In this document: piece by piece, positions 1,049-8,915 of the stretch
Layout of the letters: the number at the start of each line of letters is the position of its first letter
Numbering within the stretch: the first letter of the stretch is position 1
Source: Mucinivorans hirudinis
GTDB taxonomy: Bacteria > Bacteroidota > Bacteroidia > Bacteroidales > Rikenellaceae
Reading direction: 5' to 3'
Assembly (NCBI GenBank): GCA_000723505.1
Contig: HG934468.1
Location: 248,001 to 312,000, forward strand
DNA length: 64,000 nt
The notes under the pieces: model-generated
Seen by the model: the letters and a program-made list of their open reading frames with translations, nothing else
The model's database searches: none
Told to the model about the DNA's origin: nothing
Position numbers and translations under genes: made by a program

Positions 1049-2911
1049 ATGGCAGAGAAAAAACAACTGATGGCGGAATTTCCACCCGTATCCACCCAAA
1101 AGTGGAAAGAGGTCATCACAGCCGACCTTAAAGGGGCTGACTACGAGAAAAAACTCGTATGGAAAACGCTCGAAGGCTTCGCGGTAGAGCCATTTTACAG
1201 GGCAGAAGACCTTGCGGGTCTCAAACATATCGGGGGCAAAGCCGGTGAGTTTCCCTATGTGAACGGAGCGAAAATGCGCAATGATTGGTTTGTGCGTCAG
1301 ACAATTAAGGTAGATTGCCCAAAGGAGGCAAACAAACAAGCCCTCGATGTGCTTATGCGTGGAGTAGATTCGATTGGCTTTGTTGTGGGCGACAAAGAGT
1401 TCTCAAAGGCTGACCTCGATGTGCTCTTGAACGGGATAGAACTCAAAGCAGTAGAGGTAGCATTTAGCGGCTGCGGAGTTAAAAACGTTGCAACGCTATT
1501 TATCGAGAATTATGCCGCCGAAGGCGTACGCGCCACGTTCGACATCGACCCTCTGAAAAAGGCTACCAAGAAAGGTGGATACTGCAAAGGTTGCGGCGAA
1601 AGTTGCAACTGCTTCAACAAACTTGTCGAGCTTATAAAAGCCAAGGGCGAGAGCAAAATTCGTATTGTTGGTGTTGGTGGCGTGCTGTTTAATGCGGCGG
1701 GTGCAAATGCGGTTCAGGAGTTGGCATTTAGCCTTGCTATGGGACACGAATACTTGGCAGCTTTAATTGGTATGGGTTTGAGTGTAGACCAAGCCGCTTG
1801 CTCGATGAAGTTCACGATGGCAATCAGTTCCAACTACTTTATGGAGATTGCAAAATTCCGCGCAGCTCGTATGTTGTGGGCGAACATTGTTAAGCAATAT
1901 AACCCACAGACAAGTTGCGCTTCAAAAATGCGCGTACATACGGTTACCTCTGAGTGGAATATGACCGTTTACGACCCATATGTAAATATGCTGCGCGGAA
2001 CTACAGAGGCTATGTCGGCAGCCATTGCGGGGGTAGACTCTATCGAGGTTCTTCCTTTTGACCACTGCTTCGAGTCTCCGACCGAATTCTCGACCCGCAT
2101 AGCTCGCAACGCGCAACTCCTTCTGAAAGAGGAATCTCATTTAGACCAAGTAGTCGACCCATCGGCAGGCTCATACTATATTGAGACGCTTACTGCAAAA
2201 ATTGCCGAGGCAGCTTGGGAACTTTTCAAGAAAGTTGAAGATAAGGGCGGCTACTGCGCCTCATTGCAAGAGGGTTTCATACAAGATATAATCAAGGCAA
2301 CGTCCGACGCTCGCGACAAGAGCATAGCTACACGCCGCGAAACCCTGCTTGGCACAAACCAATATCCAAATTTTAATGAAGTGGCAGACAAGGCTGTAAC
2401 GGCTCAGGATGTTACTCGTTGCACGGGTCAGGGCACGTGTGGTTGTGGCGGAACTGAGACAGCGTTCAAACCTTTGCGTACCTATCGCGGCGCAATGGAG
2501 TTCGAGGCGCTTCGCTTCAAAACAGACAAGGCGGCAAAAGAGCCTAAGGCATTTATGCTCACTTGCGGTGCTTTGGCATTCGCTCGCGCACGCGCTCAAT
2601 TCTCTTGCAATTTCTTTGCTTGCGCAGGTATCCGCGTTCAGGATAACACATATTTCAATAGTGTTGCGCAGGGTGCCGCGGCGGCTTTGGAGGCTAAGGC
2701 TGAGATTGTGGTTGTTTGTGCCGCGGACGACGACTATGCTACATTGGCTGTGGAGGCTTACAACCTGTTGAAGGGTAAGGCTATCGTGGTTGTAGCGGGT
2801 GCCCCTGCCTGCCGAGCGGAGTTAGAGGCAGCCGGAATCAAGCACTTTATCTCGGTAAAGGATAATGTTTTGGAAACTCTAAAAGCATACCAGACCGAAT
2901 TAGGAATCTAA
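1049..2911 (+). CDS. mutA: Methylmalonyl-CoA mutase small (beta) subunit
   Basis: Structural subunit of the B12-dependent mutase that interconverts succinyl-CoA and methylmalonyl-CoA in the propionate pathway. The 620 residues show the mutase TIM-barrel region (for example YFMEIAKFRAARMLWANIVK near 270) and a C-terminal flavodoxin-like domain that lacks the cobalamin-binding DxHxxG motif, as expected for this subunit. Two cysteine-rich stretches stand out: CKGCGESCNCF near residue 180 and CTGQGTCGCGG near 460. The mutB gene follows 100 bases downstream in the same direction, so co-expression is likely. Confidence 0.93.
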   Translation: MAEKKQLMAEFPPVSTQKWKEVITADLKGADYEKKLVWKTLEGFAVEPFYRAEDLAGLKHIGGKAGEFPYVNGAKMRNDWFVRQTIKVDCPKEANKQALDVLMRGVDSIGFVVGDKEFSKADLDVLLNGIELKAVEVAFSGCGVKNVATLFIENYAAEGVRATFDIDPLKKATKKGGYCKGCGESCNCFNKLVELIKAKGESKIRIVGVGGVLFNAAGANAVQELAFSLAMGHEYLAALIGMGLSVDQAACSMKFTMAISSNYFMEIAKFRAARMLWANIVKQYNPQTSCASKMRVHTVTSEWNMTVYDPYVNMLRGTTEAMSAAIAGVDSIEVLPFDHCFESPTEFSTRIARNAQLLLKEESHLDQVVDPSAGSYYIETLTAKIAEAAWELFKKVEDKGGYCASLQEGFIQDIIKATSDARDKSIATRRETLLGTNQYPNFNEVADKAVTAQDVTRCTGQGTCGCGGTETAFKPLRTYRGAMEFEALRFKTDKAAKEPKAFMLTCGALAFARARAQFSCNFFACAGIRVQDNTYFNSVAQGAAAALEAKAEIVVVCAADDDYATLAVEAYNLLKGKAIVVVAGAPACRAELEAAGIKHFISVKDNVLETLKAYQTELGI

Positions 2912-3011
2912 AAAAAAGCCGTAGATGTCGTTGCGGCTTGCGATGCAATTTACGCGGAATTCTATGTGTAAGATTGTAGGTCAAGATCGCAATTAAAAAT
3001 ACAAAGAAATA

Positions 3012-5150
3012 ATGAGAGCAAATTTTTCAGAAATAAATTATAAAGGAGAGGCGACAGGCAGTTGCTGTTGCTCTTCAAAAACCCCTTGCGAAAAAGAGGT
3101 TTGGATGTCGCCGGAATTGATTCCCGTTAAAGGAACATACTCGGCAGAGGATTTGAACGGTATGGAGCACCTGAATTATGCAGCAGGTGTTGCCCCATTC
3201 CTTCGCGGACCCTACTCCACGATGTATGTTATGCGTCCGTGGACAGTGCGTCAGTATGCCGGTTTCTCGACTGCTGCCGAGTCTAATGCGTTCTACAAGC
3301 GCAACTTGGCTTCGGGACAAAAGGGTCTTTCCGTGGCTTTTGACTTGGCTACTCACCGCGGTTACGATGCAGACCACCCACGCGTTGTGGGCGACGTTGG
3401 TAAGGCGGGGGTATCCATCTGCTCGGTGGAGGATATGAAGGTGCTATTCGACGGTATTCCGCTGAACCAAATGTCTGTTTCGATGACTATGAACGGAGCG
3501 GTACTTCCCGTTTTGGCATTCTATATCGTTGCAGGTATGGAGCAAGGAGCATCACTCGACCAACTTTCAGGTACTATTCAGAACGATATTTTGAAGGAGT
3601 TTATGGTGCGTAACACCTATATCTACCCTCCAAAATTCTCGATGAAGATTATCGCAGATATTTTTGCATACACTTCAAAGAATATGCCTAAGTTCAACTC
3701 TATCTCAATCTCGGGCTACCATATGCAGGAGGCGGGTGCAACCTGCGATATCGAGTTGGCATATACATTGGCGGATGGTCTGGAATATTTGAGAGCAGGC
3801 ACAAATGCAGGTATGTCTATCGACTCATTTGCTCCACGTTTGTCCTTCTTCTGGGCGATTGGTATGAACCACTTTATGGAGATTGCCAAGATGCGTGCGG
3901 CACGTCTTTTGTGGGCAAAGATTGTTAAACAATTTAACCCTAAATCCGAAAAGTCGTTAGCATTGCGTACCCACTCGCAAACTTCGGGTTGGTCGCTCAC
4001 CGAACAAGACCCATTCAACAACGTTGCCCGCACCGCTATCGAGGCTATGGCATCGGCTCTGGGACACACTCAGTCGCTCCACACCAACGCCTTGGACGAA
4101 GCTATCGCTCTGCCAACAGACTTTTCGGCACGTATTGCTCGTAACACCCAAATCTATATCCAAGAGGAGACTAATATTTGCAAAGCAGTAGACCCTTGGG
4201 CAGGTTCTTACTATGTGGAGACTCTGACCAACGAAATTGCACACAAGGCGTGGGCTTTGATTGAAGAGGTTGAGTCGCTCGGCGGTATGGCAGCAGCAAT
4301 CGAAACGGGCGTACCAAAGATGCGTATCGAAGAGGCGGCAGCCCGCACTCAGGCTAAGATTGACTCGGGTGAGCAGACTATTGTCGGTCTGAATAAATAT
4401 CGTTTGGAAAAGGAAGACCCAATCGATATTTTGGACGTAGACAACACGGCTGTACGCCTTTCGCAAATAGAGCGTCTGAAAGAGCTTCGGGCGAACCGCG
4501 ACGAGGCAGCTGTTAAAGTGGCACTGGCGGCAATTACCAAGTGCGTTGAGACGGGCGAAGGTAACCTATTGGAGTTGGCTGTGGAGGCTGCCAAGGTTCG
4601 CGCTTCTCTGGGTGAAATATCTGATGCCTGCGAAATTATCGTGGGGCGTTATAGAGCTACAATCCGTACAATTTCAGGCGTTTATTCATCAACTGTGAAA
4701 GATAACGAAAAGTTTGCTCAGGCGAAAGGCTTGGCAGAGGCGTTTGCAAAGAAGGAGGGTCGCCAACCTCGTATTATGATTGCCAAGTTGGGTCAGGATG
4801 GACACGACCGCGGTGCAAAAGTTGTTTCAACCGGCTATGCCGATATAGGCTTTGACGTGGATATGGGACCTCTGTTCCAAACTCCGGAGGAGGCTGCTAA
4901 ACAAGCAGTTGAAAATGACGTACACGTAGTAGGCGTATCCTCGCTCGCGGCGGGACACAAAACACTTGTTCCACAAATCGTTGCGGAGCTTGAGAAATTG
5001 GGTCGCCCGGACATCGTGGTGGTTGTGGGTGGTGTTATCCCTGCTCAGGACTACGCGGCATTGTATGATGCAGGTGCAGCGGCAATCTTCGGACCCGGTA
5101 CACCTGTTACGGATGCGGCGATTAAGATTCTCGAGATATTATCCGAGTAA
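3012..5150 (+). CDS. mutB: Methylmalonyl-CoA mutase large (alpha) subunit
   Basis: Catalytic, adenosylcobalamin-binding subunit, 712 residues. The N-terminal substrate barrel contains [19 protein letters not shown] near residue 75. The C-terminal B12 domain has [13 protein letters not shown] near residue 595, where the His of DxHxRG is the lower cobalt ligand. The N-terminus carries an unusual Cys cluster, [13 protein letters not shown], around residues 18-30. It pairs with mutA just upstream; together they allow propionate formation from succinate, a common Bacteroidales fermentation route. Confidence 0.95.
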
Positions 5151-5240: not shown

Positions 5241-6125
5241 CTATAAAGCGGGAGGGATATTTTTCTCACTTGCCTTTTTGTGGCGAAATCCGGAGTCTCC
5301 CTCTATTTTCTTTCTCAGCAATTTAGAGTATATCAGTGCTCGGATAGCGGAGGGCATAATCCTCACAGGAAAACGCACCGCTATATTCCTCAACATATCA
5401 ACGAAACGGATAACCCCCATTTTATAAAACCGATACATCAAGCAAACCTCCCCTTTAGCATACCTCCATCCCCCGCGGCGAGTAGCCATAGAAACGCCAC
5501 CACGAACGTTGACCAGCCTTTGTTGGACATTGTAAAGTGTTGCTCCACAGGCAATCATTCGACCCCAAAGCCAATAATCTTCCAATAGGTAAAAGTGCTG
5601 ATAACCTCCTGCTTCTAAAACCCTGCCACGACGGAACATAACGGTCACGTGGTTCACTGGTGTCTTCTTTCGGAAGTATTTTTTGAGCTGGTCATCTGTT
5701 TCCGGCGCTCGGCGTTCTGATACTATTTCGGCTGGGTCGTCTTCAAATTCGCTTATCCAACCGCCCACAATCGACAGTTCCGGGTTCTCGGCAAATGCTT
5801 TTAATTGCAGTTCAAAGCGTTGTGGCATCGAAATGTCATCACTATCCATCCGCGCCACCAGGTCGTATTGGCACACTTTCAACCCCTCGTTAAGAGCCAT
5901 ACCAAGCCCCACGTTTTCAGGTAATGACAGCACCTTTAAGGATTTATACTTTGACTCAAACTCATCAACCACCTCGTCGAGTTCCGCCGTTAGCGCGCCA
6001 TCTTTGACCAAAACCACCTCATCAGGCTCTATTGTCTGTTCAAAAACACTACGTAGTGCCTCCCGCAGGTATTCCTTTTTTTCGCGATGATATACAGAGA
6101 TTAGAACGCTAAATTTCTCCATCAT
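5241..6125 (-). CDS. Family 2 glycosyltransferase
   Basis: A 294-residue GT-A enzyme that likely transfers a sugar from a nucleotide sugar onto a glycan. The N-terminus KFSVLISVYHREKKEYL begins the nucleotide-binding fold, and LVARMDSDDIS near residue 90 carries the metal-binding DxD. EDYWLWGRM near 180 is the acceptor-side ED motif typical of GT2. A basic C-terminal tail suggests membrane association. It overlaps the upstream GT4 gene by 17 bases, so the two are translationally coupled and probably act on the same surface polysaccharide. Donor and acceptor cannot be told. Confidence 0.85.
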   Translation of the reverse strand: MMEKFSVLISVYHREKKEYLREALRSVFEQTIEPDEVVLVKDGALTAELDEVVDEFESKYKSLKVLSLPENVGLGMALNEGLKVCQYDLVARMDSDDISMPQRFELQLKAFAENPELSIVGGWISEFEDDPAEIVSERRAPETDDQLKKYFRKKTPVNHVTVMFRRGRVLEAGGYQHFYLLEDYWLWGRMIACGATLYNVQQRLVNVRGGVSMATRRGGWRYAKGEVCLMYRFYKMGVIRFVDMLRNIAVRFPVRIMPSAIRALIYSKLLRKKIEGDSGFRHKKASEKNIPPAL

Positions 6126-7152
6126 AAATTTTTATATGCCTATCATAAAAGGCTCTAGGTGAGTATTTTTCTAAATATAGCGCATAAATATTTCGCGAGA
6201 GAACATCGCGATTTAACATCGCATCCCCTATCGCTCCCACTATCGAATTTTCTGTGTCCAACTCAAACATCTCTACCTCAGTGCCTTTAGTCACTATTTC
6301 GCGGAAAATCTCAATATCAGACACTACGCAGGCTTTTCCGTAACAAGCCGCCTCTAAGAGTGACAATGGAAATCCCTCGCTACGACTCGGCATCGCAAAA
6401 ATATCATAGTGAGGCAGATACCGATACGCTTCGGGTTGCGTACCCGCAAAAAAACATCTATCGTAAACTCCCACCTTGCGCGCCTGCTTTTCCAGCTCCT
6501 CGCGCGAGCGCCCGTCACCAACAATATACAACTTGTGGTTGGGCAACTCAGCCAACGCATCTATCAATATATCAATACCTTTCACTGTGGATAACACAGC
6601 ATTAACACCAATGAGAGTTGCCTCTCCCTTAAACTTTTGCAGTGTCACAAGTTCATCATTTGTAATCTTTTTCGTATAATCTACCGTGCGAGTATTGTAG
6701 GCATAGGTCAGTTTTGCGGGAGTAATCCACTGTTTGTAATACTCCTTGGCGGTCTTGCTCAACGTAATGACGCGGTCTAATTTCCCAAGGCTGCGCATCC
6801 ACAACCGTCCGAAGACTTGAGCGACAAACCAATTGTATTGATACCTAAAATCCTGAAAGACAAATGGATGCACGGTAGACATATACTTCACTCGTCCGCT
6901 ATGCTCTCTAAATCTGCTCACGTACTTATCGGGACGCATTCCGTGGCTGTGAACAACGTCAAACTGCACGAAATCAATGGCTTGATTTGCCTGAATTTTC
7001 ACAGTCGTGCACGGAAAATCGAGCGGAGGTTTCTCGTCGAAATAGAAGACCGTGCACAGATGATCATTCTCCATCATAACCTTAACCAACTCATAGACAA
7101 CTAAAACCGGCCCCTTTGCCGCAAGTGACGGAACGATATATGCTATATTCAT
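6109..7152 (-). CDS. Family 4 glycosyltransferase
   Basis: A 347-residue GT-B enzyme. The N-terminal half starts MNIAYIVPSLAAKGPVLVVYE. The C-terminal donor domain contains IVGDGRSREELEKQA and the signature MPSRSEGFPLSLLEAACYGK near 255-275, with the Glu residues of the EX7E motif of GT4. It is preceded by the WG-repeat gene with a 4-base overlap and followed by the GT2 gene. The pair probably extends a cell-surface glycan; the sugar is unknown. Confidence 0.87.
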   Translation of the reverse strand: MNIAYIVPSLAAKGPVLVVYELVKVMMENDHLCTVFYFDEKPPLDFPCTTVKIQANQAIDFVQFDVVHSHGMRPDKYVSRFREHSGRVKYMSTVHPFVFQDFRYQYNWFVAQVFGRLWMRSLGKLDRVITLSKTAKEYYKQWITPAKLTYAYNTRTVDYTKKITNDELVTLQKFKGEATLIGVNAVLSTVKGIDILIDALAELPNHKLYIVGDGRSREELEKQARKVGVYDRCFFAGTQPEAYRYLPHYDIFAMPSRSEGFPLSLLEAACYGKACVVSDIEIFREIVTKGTEVEMFELDTENSIVGAIGDAMLNRDVLSRNIYALYLEKYSPRAFYDRHIKIYDGEI

Positions 7153-7988
7153 TGCACCTCTCCTTTTGTATTTATTACTAAATCCTTGCCCGCCAGACGT
7201 ACCCGCGCAAAACCGCTCTCGTCGAAAGAAGTTGCATTTTCGTATGCGGGCGTAATAGCTTCAACACCCTGCAAATCAACATATCCATACTTGCCACCAC
7301 TGCGCACCAGCAGTAATCCATCAGAAAATTCGCCCATCCAATCATATCTGCAACCTACAATTTCACGCCCACTGCGGTCGAAACAGCCCCACTTTCCCTT
7401 TTTGTTGCAGTAGGCAATCGCCGAGCCATCCCACGAAATTTCGTCAAAAATAGTATTAATCACCAATTTACCGTCCGGTTTACTCAGCCCGCTCAGACCC
7501 TTTCGAACCACAACTGCACGCCCCTCTTCAAACTCCTCCACACGGTCGTACATAGCCTCGATCACCACCTCGCCAGTCTCCTTCTCCTTATACCCCCAAA
7601 GCCCACCACTCTCAAAAGGAATCAACCCCTCATTATATATAGCAGCCTCATCTGCAACACGCTCATTATCAAACTCTAGGAAAATAGGGTAATAATCCCC
7701 CGATTGGTGGTCGTCAAAGACCAAAAGTTCACTCTCCACAACAGAGCCGTGAATAATGCCGGCTGCTGCGAGACAACTCGTTCGCTCATACCCCTTTACA
7801 GAGGTAAAACACTTCAAAGCAGCAACTTTACCACTACACTCAACCATAAATGTTACCACCCCTTTAGATGAATAGAATAGCGGATACCCCTCCTTGTCGA
7901 ACACCGTTCTAATGTCCGACAAGGTGAGCAATCTGCTGTGGAGGTTCATAACTGCCTCAATATAATTGTTAATCGAAGGAAAGCGCAT
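7149..7988 (-). CDS. WG-repeat protein with kinase-like N-terminus
   Basis: About 279 residues from the ATG at 7988; a GTG at 8063, immediately after the VWA stop codon, would add 25 residues. The N-terminal 100 residues resemble a truncated protein kinase N-lobe: VVTFMVECSGKVAALKCFTS contains an invariant-Lys-like ALK. No HRD or DFG motif follows. The rest is a series of WG (KWG) repeats such as LWGYKEKETG, GKWGCFDRSG and GKYGYVDLQG. The VWA gene is directly upstream. I infer a decayed partner of a TerY-P-type signalling module; the function is unproven. Confidence 0.6.
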   Translation of the reverse strand: MRFPSINNYIEAVMNLHSRLLTLSDIRTVFDKEGYPLFYSSKGVVTFMVECSGKVAALKCFTSVKGYERTSCLAAAGIIHGSVVESELLVFDDHQSGDYYPIFLEFDNERVADEAAIYNEGLIPFESGGLWGYKEKETGEVVIEAMYDRVEEFEEGRAVVVRKGLSGLSKPDGKLVINTIFDEISWDGSAIAYCNKKGKWGCFDRSGREIVGCRYDWMGEFSDGLLLVRSGGKYGYVDLQGVEAITPAYENATSFDESGFARVRLAGKDLVINTKGEVQ

Positions 7989-8063
7989 TGTTTCAGTGAA
8001 AAATAAAAAGTGAGAAATCGCGTAAAATGAGGTAGCGAAAATATTTTTCGCCGCATTTTTCAC

Positions 8064-8915
8064 CTATAATTTATATACTGTTGTGCTGCCAATATTTATG
8101 AATTTTACGAGGTCGGACATCGAGGCATTAAAAGCCATACCACGGTATTCGCCAACAATAGGGTGGTCGAAATGTATGGCAATTTCTCGCGCAAAACAGT
8201 CAGGCATTTTGCTCGATATGGAGTATAATAGATGGGCGTACTTGTCCTCGGGCAACTCACTTTCGTTTTCAGGAAAAATGATTGAACTCTCGGAGCTGCC
8301 ACTCAAATGAATATTCATCAGAATTGGCTCACCATCAGACGTTTGCAAAGTTTTTATCTGCGCAACAACCTCCACCAACTCCCTCTCTGTCGAGTCGGTC
8401 GCTTCGCCATCCGAGATGTTGATGATAAGCGGCGGAAACGAATCGTAATGCTCACCACACCAATCTTTTATCTCGCCATACACCCTGCTGAAAGCCGCAC
8501 GCATCGGAGTTCTGCCGTGCGCGGTTGCCTCCACCCAAACTCGCTGCAATACGTTGGTTACGGCAACCTTTCCATCGGGCATTAATCTTTGTCTTTGAAC
8601 GTTTTGCGTCTCTTTTACTATGCCCACTAACTTTTCAGGCGAGACAAAATAGCTATTCGAGTCCGCCAGCAGCGACTGCACACCCGCACCCGAATAGCCC
8701 ACTACCATTATATCATAATAGTGTTTATATCCGCTCTCGCAGCGAGAGCGAGCTACAAACTCCTCCAACAAGTTGTTGATTATCTCCGCAACAGCTATAC
8801 ACTTGGGTTTCCATCCATCACGCCACGCTATGGTCTCCCACATCGAACCCGACTGGTCTACCATAATCACAACCGCCATTGGGTTGCGCACCGATATTTT
8901 CGCCTGATGAGCCAA
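8064..8915 (-). CDS. VWA-domain protein, TerY-like
   Basis: A 283-residue von Willebrand factor A protein. The MIDAS motif is VIMVDQSGSM with Asp20, Ser22 and Ser24, followed by NISDGEATDS near 165, so divalent-metal binding is probably intact. No signal peptide is visible, so it should be cytoplasmic. Its layout resembles TerY-type VWA proteins, which in TerY-P triads travel with a PP2C phosphatase and a kinase. Here the next gene is a WG-repeat protein with a kinase-like start, and no phosphatase gene lies between them. Confidence 0.75.
   Translation of the reverse strand: MAHQAKISVRNPMAVVIMVDQSGSMWETIAWRDGWKPKCIAVAEIINNLLEEFVARSRCESGYKHYYDIMVVGYSGAGVQSLLADSNSYFVSPEKLVGIVKETQNVQRQRLMPDGKVAVTNVLQRVWVEATAHGRTPMRAAFSRVYGEIKDWCGEHYDSFPPLIINISDGEATDSTERELVEVVAQIKTLQTSDGEPILMNIHLSGSSESSIIFPENESELPEDKYAHLLYSISSKMPDCFAREIAIHFDHPIVGEYRGMAFNASMSDLVKFINIGSTTVYKL

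What the first reader, a model, noticed from the sequence alone, without database searches (positions are those of the whole stretch)
7149..8915. Remnant TerY-P-like module: VWA plus WG protein with half a kinase
A VWA protein with an intact MIDAS is followed directly by a WG-repeat protein whose first 100 residues look like a kinase N-lobe (GKVAALKCFT with a hinge-like YYPIFLEF) but with no catalytic HRD or DFG. In TerY-P triads a PP2C phosphatase and complete kinase accompany TerY. The phosphatase is absent and the kinase C-lobe seems replaced by WG repeats. Either decay or a new non-catalytic sensor.
Basis: partly seen in the sequence, partly recalled or inferred. Interest (0 to 1): 0.55.

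Follow-up and report, generated by a model that had tools for sequence, protein, structure and literature searches.

The report
TerY protein with half-pseudokinase partner
A gut bacterium carries a metal-site signalling protein (TerY) next to a conserved partner that keeps only the upper half of a protein kinase joined to a sensor-like propeller, while the working kinase sits elsewhere in the genome; this looks like a rewired, phosphatase-free version of a known phage-defence signalling set rather than a decayed leftover.

Summary
Window 8064-8915 (-) is a TerY-type VWA protein (PADLOC TerY model, E=2e-57) with an intact MIDAS. Window 7149-7988 (-) is a kinase N-lobe (31% identity over 112 columns to an intact kinase-WG protein elsewhere in the genome) joined to WG repeats, with no C-lobe. 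No PP2C was found.

Decay does not hold. In the family (Rikenellaceae), TerY is near-core (88 of 101 genomes) and usually followed by a full-length WG pseudokinase, "K2" (catalytic HRD-Asp in 0 of 65); an active-type kinase-WG, "K1" (HRD-Asp in 56 of 57), lies upstream in 55 of 88 loci. PP2C was detected in 0 of 101, but in 11 of 11 TerY loci sampled elsewhere in the phylum. K2 lost its C-lobe at least three times, once in the window + Rikenella clade, where K1 has moved away but been kept. The remaining N-lobe is under purifying selection (dN/dS about 0.24).

Best reading: a phosphatase-less TerY-P derivative with K2 as a non-catalytic regulatory subunit. Anatomy and history are shown; control of K1 through the N-lobe is inferred. 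WG repeats did not replace the C-lobe: full-length K2 already has them. Novelty: new variant of a known kind.

The parts
8064..8915 (-). TerY-type VWA protein, 283 aa, TTG start, no Pfam-level domain besides a weak VWA
   Evidence: PADLOC TerY (PDLC02224) E=2e-57, residues 1-278; single copy in own genome; homologues in 88 of 101 family genomes
8841..8858 (-). MIDAS first motif DQSGSM (D20, S22, S24); the other MIDAS residues are T136 (about 8508-8510) and D169 (about 8409-8411)
   Evidence: invariant in 30 of 30 aligned sequences, window included; DxSxSM in 85 of 89 tree rows
7149..7988 (-). mini-K2: kinase N-lobe + WG repeats, 279 aa, ATG start at 7988 (the ORF is open from a GTG at 8063)
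   Evidence: AlphaFold2 mean pLDDT 92.3
7674..7988 (-). kinase N-lobe, residues 1-105: N-terminal helix, strands beta1-beta3, helix C, beta4-beta5; VAIK-type Lys59 present
   Evidence: 31% identity to the own-genome kinase over 112 columns, E=2e-15; predicted elements H6-14 E38-41 E44-51 E54-61 H64-75 E81-91 E97-105, in the same order as in the full-length relative whose fold matches kinases
7152..7631 (-). WG-repeat beta-propeller-like domain, about residues 120-279
   Evidence: PF14903 E=3.3e-32; best structural matches are propellers, Z up to 8.5 over residues 110-279
6109..7152 (-). GT4 glycosyltransferase whose ATG overlaps the K2 stop by 4 bases (ATGA); possibly co-transcribed, but other genes follow K2 in related loci

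Best explanation
The pair is the linked half of a phosphatase-less, TerY-P-derived phospho-signalling module. Three parts make the module in Rikenellaceae: an active-type kinase joined to WG repeats (K1), the TerY VWA protein with a metal (MIDAS) site, and a catalytically dead kinase joined to WG repeats (K2). In the window's clade K1 lies at another chromosomal locus and K2 has lost its whole C-lobe, leaving an N-lobe fixed to a WG propeller.

Mechanism proposed: the WG propeller of K2 senses a ligand or protein; TerY acts as a MIDAS-dependent scaffold or switch; the K2 N-lobe acts as a non-catalytic regulatory subunit that docks on K1 (N-lobe to N-lobe, as recalled for PknB/PKR-type kinases) or on TerY, and so turns K1 on or off.

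Shown: anatomy, the N-lobe identity, conservation, family-wide loss of catalytic residues in K2, no PP2C detected, retention and matching phylogeny of K1. Inferred: physical contact between the parts, control of K1, and what the WG domain senses.
For: (1) TerY identity: window VWA E=2e-57; own-genome K1 matches the TerY-P kinase model STK_OB at E=2.9e-37.
(2) K1 and K2 contrast over the same columns: HRD-Asp 56 of 57 in K1 against 0 of 65 in full-length K2; DFG-Asp 57 of 57 against 14 of 65; Lys or Arg at the VAIK position 57 of 57 in K1 (50 Lys), Lys 15 of 65 in K2.
(3) C-lobe absent in 12 of 77 scored K2; at least 3 changes on the TerY tree; window + same-genus + Rikenella-group rows form one clade, SH-aLRT 93.
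(4) Purifying selection in 7 Rikenella-group mini-K2: median dN/dS 0.24 N-lobe, 0.20 WG, 0.54 linker.
(5) K1 kept though unlinked: found in 8 of 8 Rikenella-group genomes and 2 of 3 other same-genus genomes searched; HxD and DxD motifs intact in 10 of 10 of these. Nine of them plus the own copy form one clade (91) that branches where the TerY clade branches.
(6) PP2C: 0 of 101 family genomes. The same model rings in 3 of 3 outgroup TerY genomes, and a PP2C relative lies beside TerY in 11 of 11 phylum loci outside the family.
(7) Structure: window K2 pLDDT 92.3; full-length K2 is a kinase fold, best Z 15.3 to PKR, 13.9 to PknB.
Against: No interaction, complex prediction or activity was tested. 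Matching K1 and TerY trees are also what plain vertical descent gives. The short K2 also exists in 3 genomes where K1 stays linked (L067, L079, L122), so C-lobe loss is not tied to K1 moving. In one of these, G005 (L067), K1 has HGN for HGD and TerY has Asn for the first MIDAS Asp, so a working kinase and a full MIDAS are not universal. The WG part of K1 in the Rikenella-group genome G007 has an in-frame stop. No interface-like surface was demonstrated: of the 14 window N-lobe positions shared by K1, full K2 and mini-K2, 11 are hydrophobic, two Ser/Thr and one acidic; they were not mapped on a surface. dS is near saturation in the selection test (mean pS about 0.62). Neither TerY nor a convincing K1 was found in same-genus G043, nor TerY in G033, both incomplete genomes. 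The window mini-K2 itself hits no PADLOC model. No K1 was found in 23 further loci outside the window's clade, some cut short by contig ends, and their genomes were not searched for an unlinked K1 except a few of genus group g15.
Confidence: 0.55

Rival explanations
1. TerY and mini-K2 now work as a stand-alone two-protein sensor, independent of K1. The N-lobe is only a folded cap or a TerY-binding platform, and the WG propeller does the work.
For: TerY and mini-K2 stay adjacent in all 9 loci of the clade while K1 does not. Shared N-lobe positions are mainly hydrophobic. The C-lobe was lost at least three times without loss of the rest.
Against: K1 is found in 8 of 8 Rikenella-group genomes with catalytic motifs intact, and its tree follows that of TerY. 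A whole N-lobe is kept under selection about as strong as that on the WG part.
Confidence: 0.28
2. A decaying remnant of a TerY-P module, on its way to loss.
For: PP2C is not found and the C-lobe is missing. 13 of 101 family genomes show no TerY match, including 4 rated 99% complete. One relative outside the clade (G005) has lost both the K1 catalytic Asp and a MIDAS Asp.
Against: Open frames in 8 of 9 clade members, the ninth being cut by its contig end. dN/dS about 0.24 in the N-lobe. High-confidence predicted fold. The same outcome arose at least three times.
Confidence: 0.05
3. An anti-phage decoy or guard: mini-K2 mimics the N-lobe of K1 so that a phage kinase inhibitor or protease hits the decoy, and TerY reports the attack.
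For: TerY-P sets are reported as anti-phage systems (passages read in PMC11090510, PMC7699616, PMC10889362). Strong sequence divergence: the same-genus TerY of G013 has 40% identity to the window's.
Against: Near-core distribution (88 of 101) and, in 24-26 of 88 loci, aromatic-biosynthesis neighbours (motif search) rather than a sporadic defence island. TerY elsewhere in the phylum is sporadic (11 of 246 other genomes, by the PADLOC model).
Confidence: 0.07
4. A split kinase: the N-lobe pairs in trans with a free C-lobe encoded elsewhere to rebuild an active site.
For: The window N-lobe keeps the VAIK lysine (K59).
Against: A C-lobe query from a full K2 finds only K1 in the own genome, inside a complete kinase. 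The lysine is Thr in all 7 Rikenella-group members. Full-length K2 already lacked the catalytic Asp (0 of 65).
Confidence: 0.02

Closest known systems
TerY-P triad (TerY VWA + PP2C + Ser/Thr kinase fused to zinc ribbon or OB-fold)
   Same: TerY homologue with full MIDAS; a kinase homologous to the TerY-P kinase model (own K1, STK_OB E=2.9e-37); outgroup loci L232, L205 and L225 hold TerY + PP2C + kinase; of 11 phylum loci outside the family 11 have PP2C and 7 a kinase within the fetched flank
   Different: no PP2C detected in 101 genomes; kinase carries WG repeats instead of the zinc ribbon or OB-fold described for TerY-P; a second, dead kinase is present; in the window's clade the active-type kinase is unlinked and the dead one is reduced to its N-lobe
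Pseudokinases that regulate active kinases (IRAK3, KSR, STRAD and JAK JH2 types; regulatory roles recalled)
   Same: kinase fold with catalytic residues lost, kept beside an active-type paralogue; full K2 aligns with the IRAK3 pseudokinase among many kinases, Z 13.6
   Different: bacterial, fused to WG repeats and paired with TerY; in 12 of 77 cases the C-lobe is gone altogether
WG-repeat proteins (PF14903)
   Same: window protein E=3.3e-32; the WG part builds a propeller-like domain in the model
   Different: the WG part is fused to a kinase N-lobe and tied to TerY

Membership tests
TerY-P triad | TerY-type VWA with complete MIDAS | tested here: met
   PADLOC TerY E=2e-57; MIDAS residues invariant in 30 of 30 aligned sequences, window included
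TerY-P triad | PP2C phosphatase in the module | tested here: not met
   0 of 101 family genomes by the PADLOC PP2C model (its 14 built-in control genomes do not ring); the model rings in 3 of 3 outgroup TerY genomes. Pfam PP2C_2 absent from the own genome, a weak test. A very divergent phosphatase is not excluded
TerY-P triad | catalytically competent kinase gene next to TerY | tested here: not met
   the neighbour is an N-lobe only; the intact kinase of the genome is at another locus. In 55 of 88 family loci an active-type K1 does lie upstream of TerY
TerY-P triad | kinase fused to zinc ribbon or OB-fold | tested here: not met
   own K1 carries WG repeats (PF14903 E=3.2e-41, no zinc ribbon or OB family listed) and matches STK_OB only over model positions 2-235 of 562
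TerY-P triad | anti-phage activity | not testable with these tools
   reported for TerY-P sets in passages of PMC11090510, PMC7699616 and PMC10889362; nothing was found for this variant
Pseudokinase | kinase fold by homology and structure | tested here: met
   window N-lobe against K1 E=2e-15; full-length K2 model matches kinases, Z up to 15.3. The window N-lobe was not searched alone
Pseudokinase | catalytic residues lost | tested here: met
   no C-lobe in the window; HRD-Asp in 0 of 65 full-length relatives
Pseudokinase | regulates an active partner | not testable with these tools
   only co-retention and matching trees with K1 are shown
WG-repeat family PF14903 | WG repeats above the curated cut-off | tested here: met
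   110.6 bits against a cut-off of 25.6, 3 stretches
Ter tellurite-resistance system | TerD-family proteins present | tested here: not met
   TerD PF02342 in 0 of 101 family genomes; the control rang in 2 of 14

The most novel reading that the evidence does not exclude
Rikenellaceae domesticated a TerY-P phage-defence or stress triad into a near-core, phosphatase-free switch: the phosphatase's place was taken by a pseudokinase, and that pseudokinase has been pared down, several times independently, to a bare N-lobe on a WG propeller that controls the separate active kinase allosterically through N-lobe pairing. A free-standing half kinase would then be a natural minimal kinase regulator.
Probability: 0.3. 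Interest if true: 0.72.

Novelty: new variant of a known kind. Interest (0 to 1): 0.52.

Why it matters
How the VWA protein, kinase and phosphatase of TerY-P talk to one another is, as far as I know, open. This variant separates the parts: evolution has removed the phosphatase and the C-lobe of one kinase copy while keeping TerY, an N-lobe-WG protein and an active-type kinase. Recurrent loss of only the C-lobe says that the N-lobe plus WG part carries the function of the pseudokinase, which makes the docking idea directly testable with small soluble proteins. It also shows that a module that is sporadic in the rest of the phylum sample has become near-core in a family of common gut bacteria (Alistipes, Rikenella).

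Tried and rejected
Decay: rejected on selection, open frames and recurrence. Frameshifted C-lobe: rejected, the DNA between N-lobe and WG is too short. Split kinase with a free C-lobe: no candidate in the own genome. Tellurite Ter cluster: no TerD in 101 genomes. PP2C motif hits in the 88 loci: two chance matches inside unrelated reading frames. A single-sequence scan of genome contigs found no relative; a profile scan kept the best 80 loci.

Literature. Searches for TerY+VWA+PP2C+kinase, WG repeat+Bacteroides and 'WG containing repeat' gave 0 papers. TerY+phosphatase+kinase+vWA domain (12 of 173 listed), TerY-P (7), WG repeat+kinase+bacteria (5), pseudokinase+von Willebrand+bacterial genomes (3), TerY+Bacteroidetes (10 of 22 listed) and pseudokinase+anti-phage defense (6) listed no paper whose title or abstract start describes this arrangement. 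Only open-licence papers are held. Three papers were seen as passages on TerY only. The 2012 Ter paper of Anantharaman et al. is not held and is known to me only through citations and recall.

Rows dropped before counts. Of 88 TerY loci, 10 had no usable downstream K2: L082, L085 and L086 (K2-like ORFs lie upstream of TerY instead), L094, L132 and L136 (cut by contig ends or gaps), L092, L111, L135 and L137. L061 was dropped because the chosen ORF was only the WG half of a K2 split between two frames. That leaves 77 K2, of which 12 are short. In one search one residue of L122 falls by alignment in the HRD column; it is counted as mini. Two short TerY rows (L094, L136) were left out of the tree. 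The G048 copy of K1 (L146) was left out of the K1 tree; its motifs were read.
Full report
What is there. The upstream one (283 aa, TTG start) is a TerY-type VWA protein. Generic Pfam VWA models score it only E=0.16, but the PADLOC TerY model covers residues 1-278 at E=2e-57. Its MIDAS residues D20, S22, S24, T136 and D169 are invariant in 30 of 30 aligned sequences, window included. The downstream ORF is best started at ATG 7988 (279 aa), because its homologues begin at the same motif. Residues 1-104 align to residues 1-112 of an intact kinase-WG protein of the same genome (E=2e-15, 31% identity), and the rest is WG repeats (PF14903, E=3.3e-32). The AlphaFold2 model has mean pLDDT 92.3, with an N-terminal helix, strands and helix C in kinase N-lobe order up to residue 105, then a further helix and a run of strands. 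Searches with the whole model are filled by propeller matches to about residues 110-279 (Z up to 8.5). The N-lobe assignment therefore rests on sequence homology and on the full-length relative: its model (L163, pLDDT 87.7) has the same N-lobe elements and matches kinases such as PKR (Z 15.3) and PknB (Z 13.9).

The active-type kinase is elsewhere. Pfam Pkinase rings once in the own genome. The protein (460 aa, L001) has HNDLKPDN and LIDYDG and WG repeats, matches the TerY-P kinase model STK_OB at E=2.9e-37, and lies about 1.76 Mb away by contig coordinates, beside a gene that reads by eye as Rex, with no TerY beside it.

Family survey. A relative of the window TerY is found in 88 of 101 sampled family genomes, in 86 of them as one match. 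I fetched the neighbourhoods of the other 87 and compared 88 loci including the window. A kinase-WG gene of active type (K1) lies on the same strand upstream of TerY in 55 of 88 loci, within 250 bases in 40; DUF4954-type genes occur in 12 loci, in several between K1 and TerY. Directly downstream of TerY a second kinase-like WG protein (K2) could be scored in 77 loci; the 11 that could not are listed under Tried and rejected. In one alignment, K1 (56 locus copies plus the own-genome one) keeps the HRD aspartate in 56 of 57, the DFG aspartate in 57 of 57 and Lys or Arg at the VAIK position in 57 of 57. Full-length K2 keeps the HRD aspartate in 0 of 65, the DFG aspartate in 14 of 65 and the VAIK lysine in 15 of 65. 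K2 is thus a pseudokinase throughout the scored set. In 12 of 77 the C-lobe is gone: the window, one same-genus genome, seven Rikenella-group genomes (one cut by its contig end inside the WG part), and L067, L079 and L122.

History. On a TerY tree of 89 rows the full and short states need 3 changes. The window, the same-genus row and the Rikenella group form one clade (SH-aLRT 93). This is a quick tree, and the same-genus row L052 sits on a long branch. In this clade no K1 was seen next to TerY in 9 loci, one of which has only 187 upstream bases. But K1 is found elsewhere in 8 of 8 Rikenella-group genomes, and in G013 and G033 of the window's genus; the incomplete G043 gives only a marginal match. 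All 10 fetched copies keep the HxD and DxD motifs, though in G007 the WG part carries an in-frame stop. In G033 and several Rikenella-group genomes this K1 lies beside the same aminotransferase-like gene (by eye); the own-genome and G013 copies have other neighbours. Nine of these copies plus the own one form one clade (91), branching at the place where the TerY clade branches. So K1 was moved and kept while K2 was cut down. The three other short K2 (L067, L079, L122) keep a linked K1, so the two events are not tied.

Selection. Among seven Rikenella-group mini-K2, median dN/dS is 0.24 for the N-lobe (20 of 21 pairs usable), 0.20 for WG (19 of 21), 0.54 for the linker between them (16 of 21), and 0.15 for TerY (21 of 21). 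Synonymous sites are near saturation, so the values are rough, but the N-lobe behaves like the WG part and unlike the linker. The VAIK lysine, still present in the window, is Thr in all seven, so ATP chemistry is not what is being kept.

Link to TerY-P. Profile hits outside the family include a Pedosphaera contig with TerY, PP2C and kinase in a row (PADLOC E=1.6e-92, 8.2e-32, 7.1e-80), a Runella contig with a PP2C-like gene (E=4.1e-10), another gene, TerY (1.1e-60) and a kinase-WG (2e-46), and a Wallbacteria contig with TerY, PP2C and kinase. In a sample of 247 genomes of the phylum, the PADLOC TerY model rings in 12: the window's own and 11 others (the family count above used the window protein as query instead). 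In those 11 loci a PP2C relative lies beside TerY in 11 and a kinase relative within the fetched flank in 7; the four without belong to one genus group, and the next gene there reads by eye as isocitrate lyase on the other strand. The PADLOC PP2C model itself was run on proteins from 6 of the 11 and matched all 6. In Rikenellaceae that model rings in 0 of 101, although it rings in 3 of 3 outgroup TerY genomes and not in Rikenella microfusus. A very divergent phosphatase cannot be excluded. TerD rings in 0 of 101. Published descriptions, read as passages only, give TerY-P as VWA + PP2C + kinase with a zinc ribbon or OB-fold and report anti-phage activity for some (PMC11090510, PMC7699616, PMC10889362).

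Mechanism. The parts that selection keeps are a MIDAS scaffold, a WG propeller on a dead N-lobe, and an active-type kinase that need not be linked. The simplest account is a regulatory pseudokinase subunit: the WG domain senses, TerY links or gates by metal-dependent binding, and the N-lobe docks on K1 or on TerY. N-lobe pairing as an activating contact in PknB- and PKR-type kinases is recalled, not tested here. Fourteen window N-lobe positions are shared by K1, full K2 and mini-K2; 11 are hydrophobic, so they do not by themselves mark an interface. A stand-alone TerY-WG sensor that no longer needs K1 remains the main rival. Against a universal kinase role stands G005, where K1 has lost its catalytic Asp and TerY a MIDAS Asp.

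Verdict. Filed as a new variant of a known kind: it is derived from TerY-P but fails that family's tests for PP2C, for an adjacent active kinase and for the zinc-ribbon or OB-fold fusion, so it is not filed as a TerY-P member; whether it works like one is open.

Noticed in passing
window 1049-5150 (+): Two adjacent genes that read as the small and large subunits of methylmalonyl-CoA mutase (assignment by eye).
   Followed up: no
window 5241-7152 (-): Two glycosyltransferases (GT2 and GT4 type) follow K2 on the same strand, the first overlapping its stop by 4 bases; other genes stand there in related loci.
   Followed up: partly
L078, L088, L091, L102, L105, L106, L108, L110, L111, L112, L115, L124: In these loci (motif search) a DUF4954/DUF6819 protein with left-handed beta-helix (hexapeptide) character (Pfam run on the L106 copy only) is encoded near TerY, in several between K1 and TerY.
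   Followed up: partly
L067 (G005), K1 and TerY: The active-type kinase has HGN in place of HGD, the only one of 57, and the TerY of the same locus has Asn for the first MIDAS Asp; its K2 is also a short form, so this genome may hold a wholly non-catalytic, metal-free version of the module.
   Followed up: partly
L061/L161 (G008) and L073/L175 (G006): Broken frames in the module: in G008 the K2 is split between reading frames; in G006 the search reported in-frame stops in TerY and in the WG part. Real disruption or sequencing error.
   Followed up: no
genus group g19 genomes (for example G052, G075, G079, G091): Very long WG-repeat proteins (about 1,200-1,300 aa open frames), giving 12-26 WG matches per genome in nine members of this group.
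   Followed up: no
24-26 of the 88 TerY loci (for example L063, L072): Prephenate dehydrogenase-like and DAHP synthase-like genes lie close to the K1-TerY-K2 genes, a housekeeping neighbourhood rather than a defence island (motif search only).
   Followed up: partly
G045, G046, G065: Family genomes rated 99% complete with neither a TerY match nor a WG-protein match to the window query: candidates for loss of the whole module.
   Followed up: no
L241-L244 (genus group g59): TerY and PP2C without a kinase in the fetched flank; the neighbouring gene reads by eye as isocitrate lyase on the other strand.
   Followed up: no
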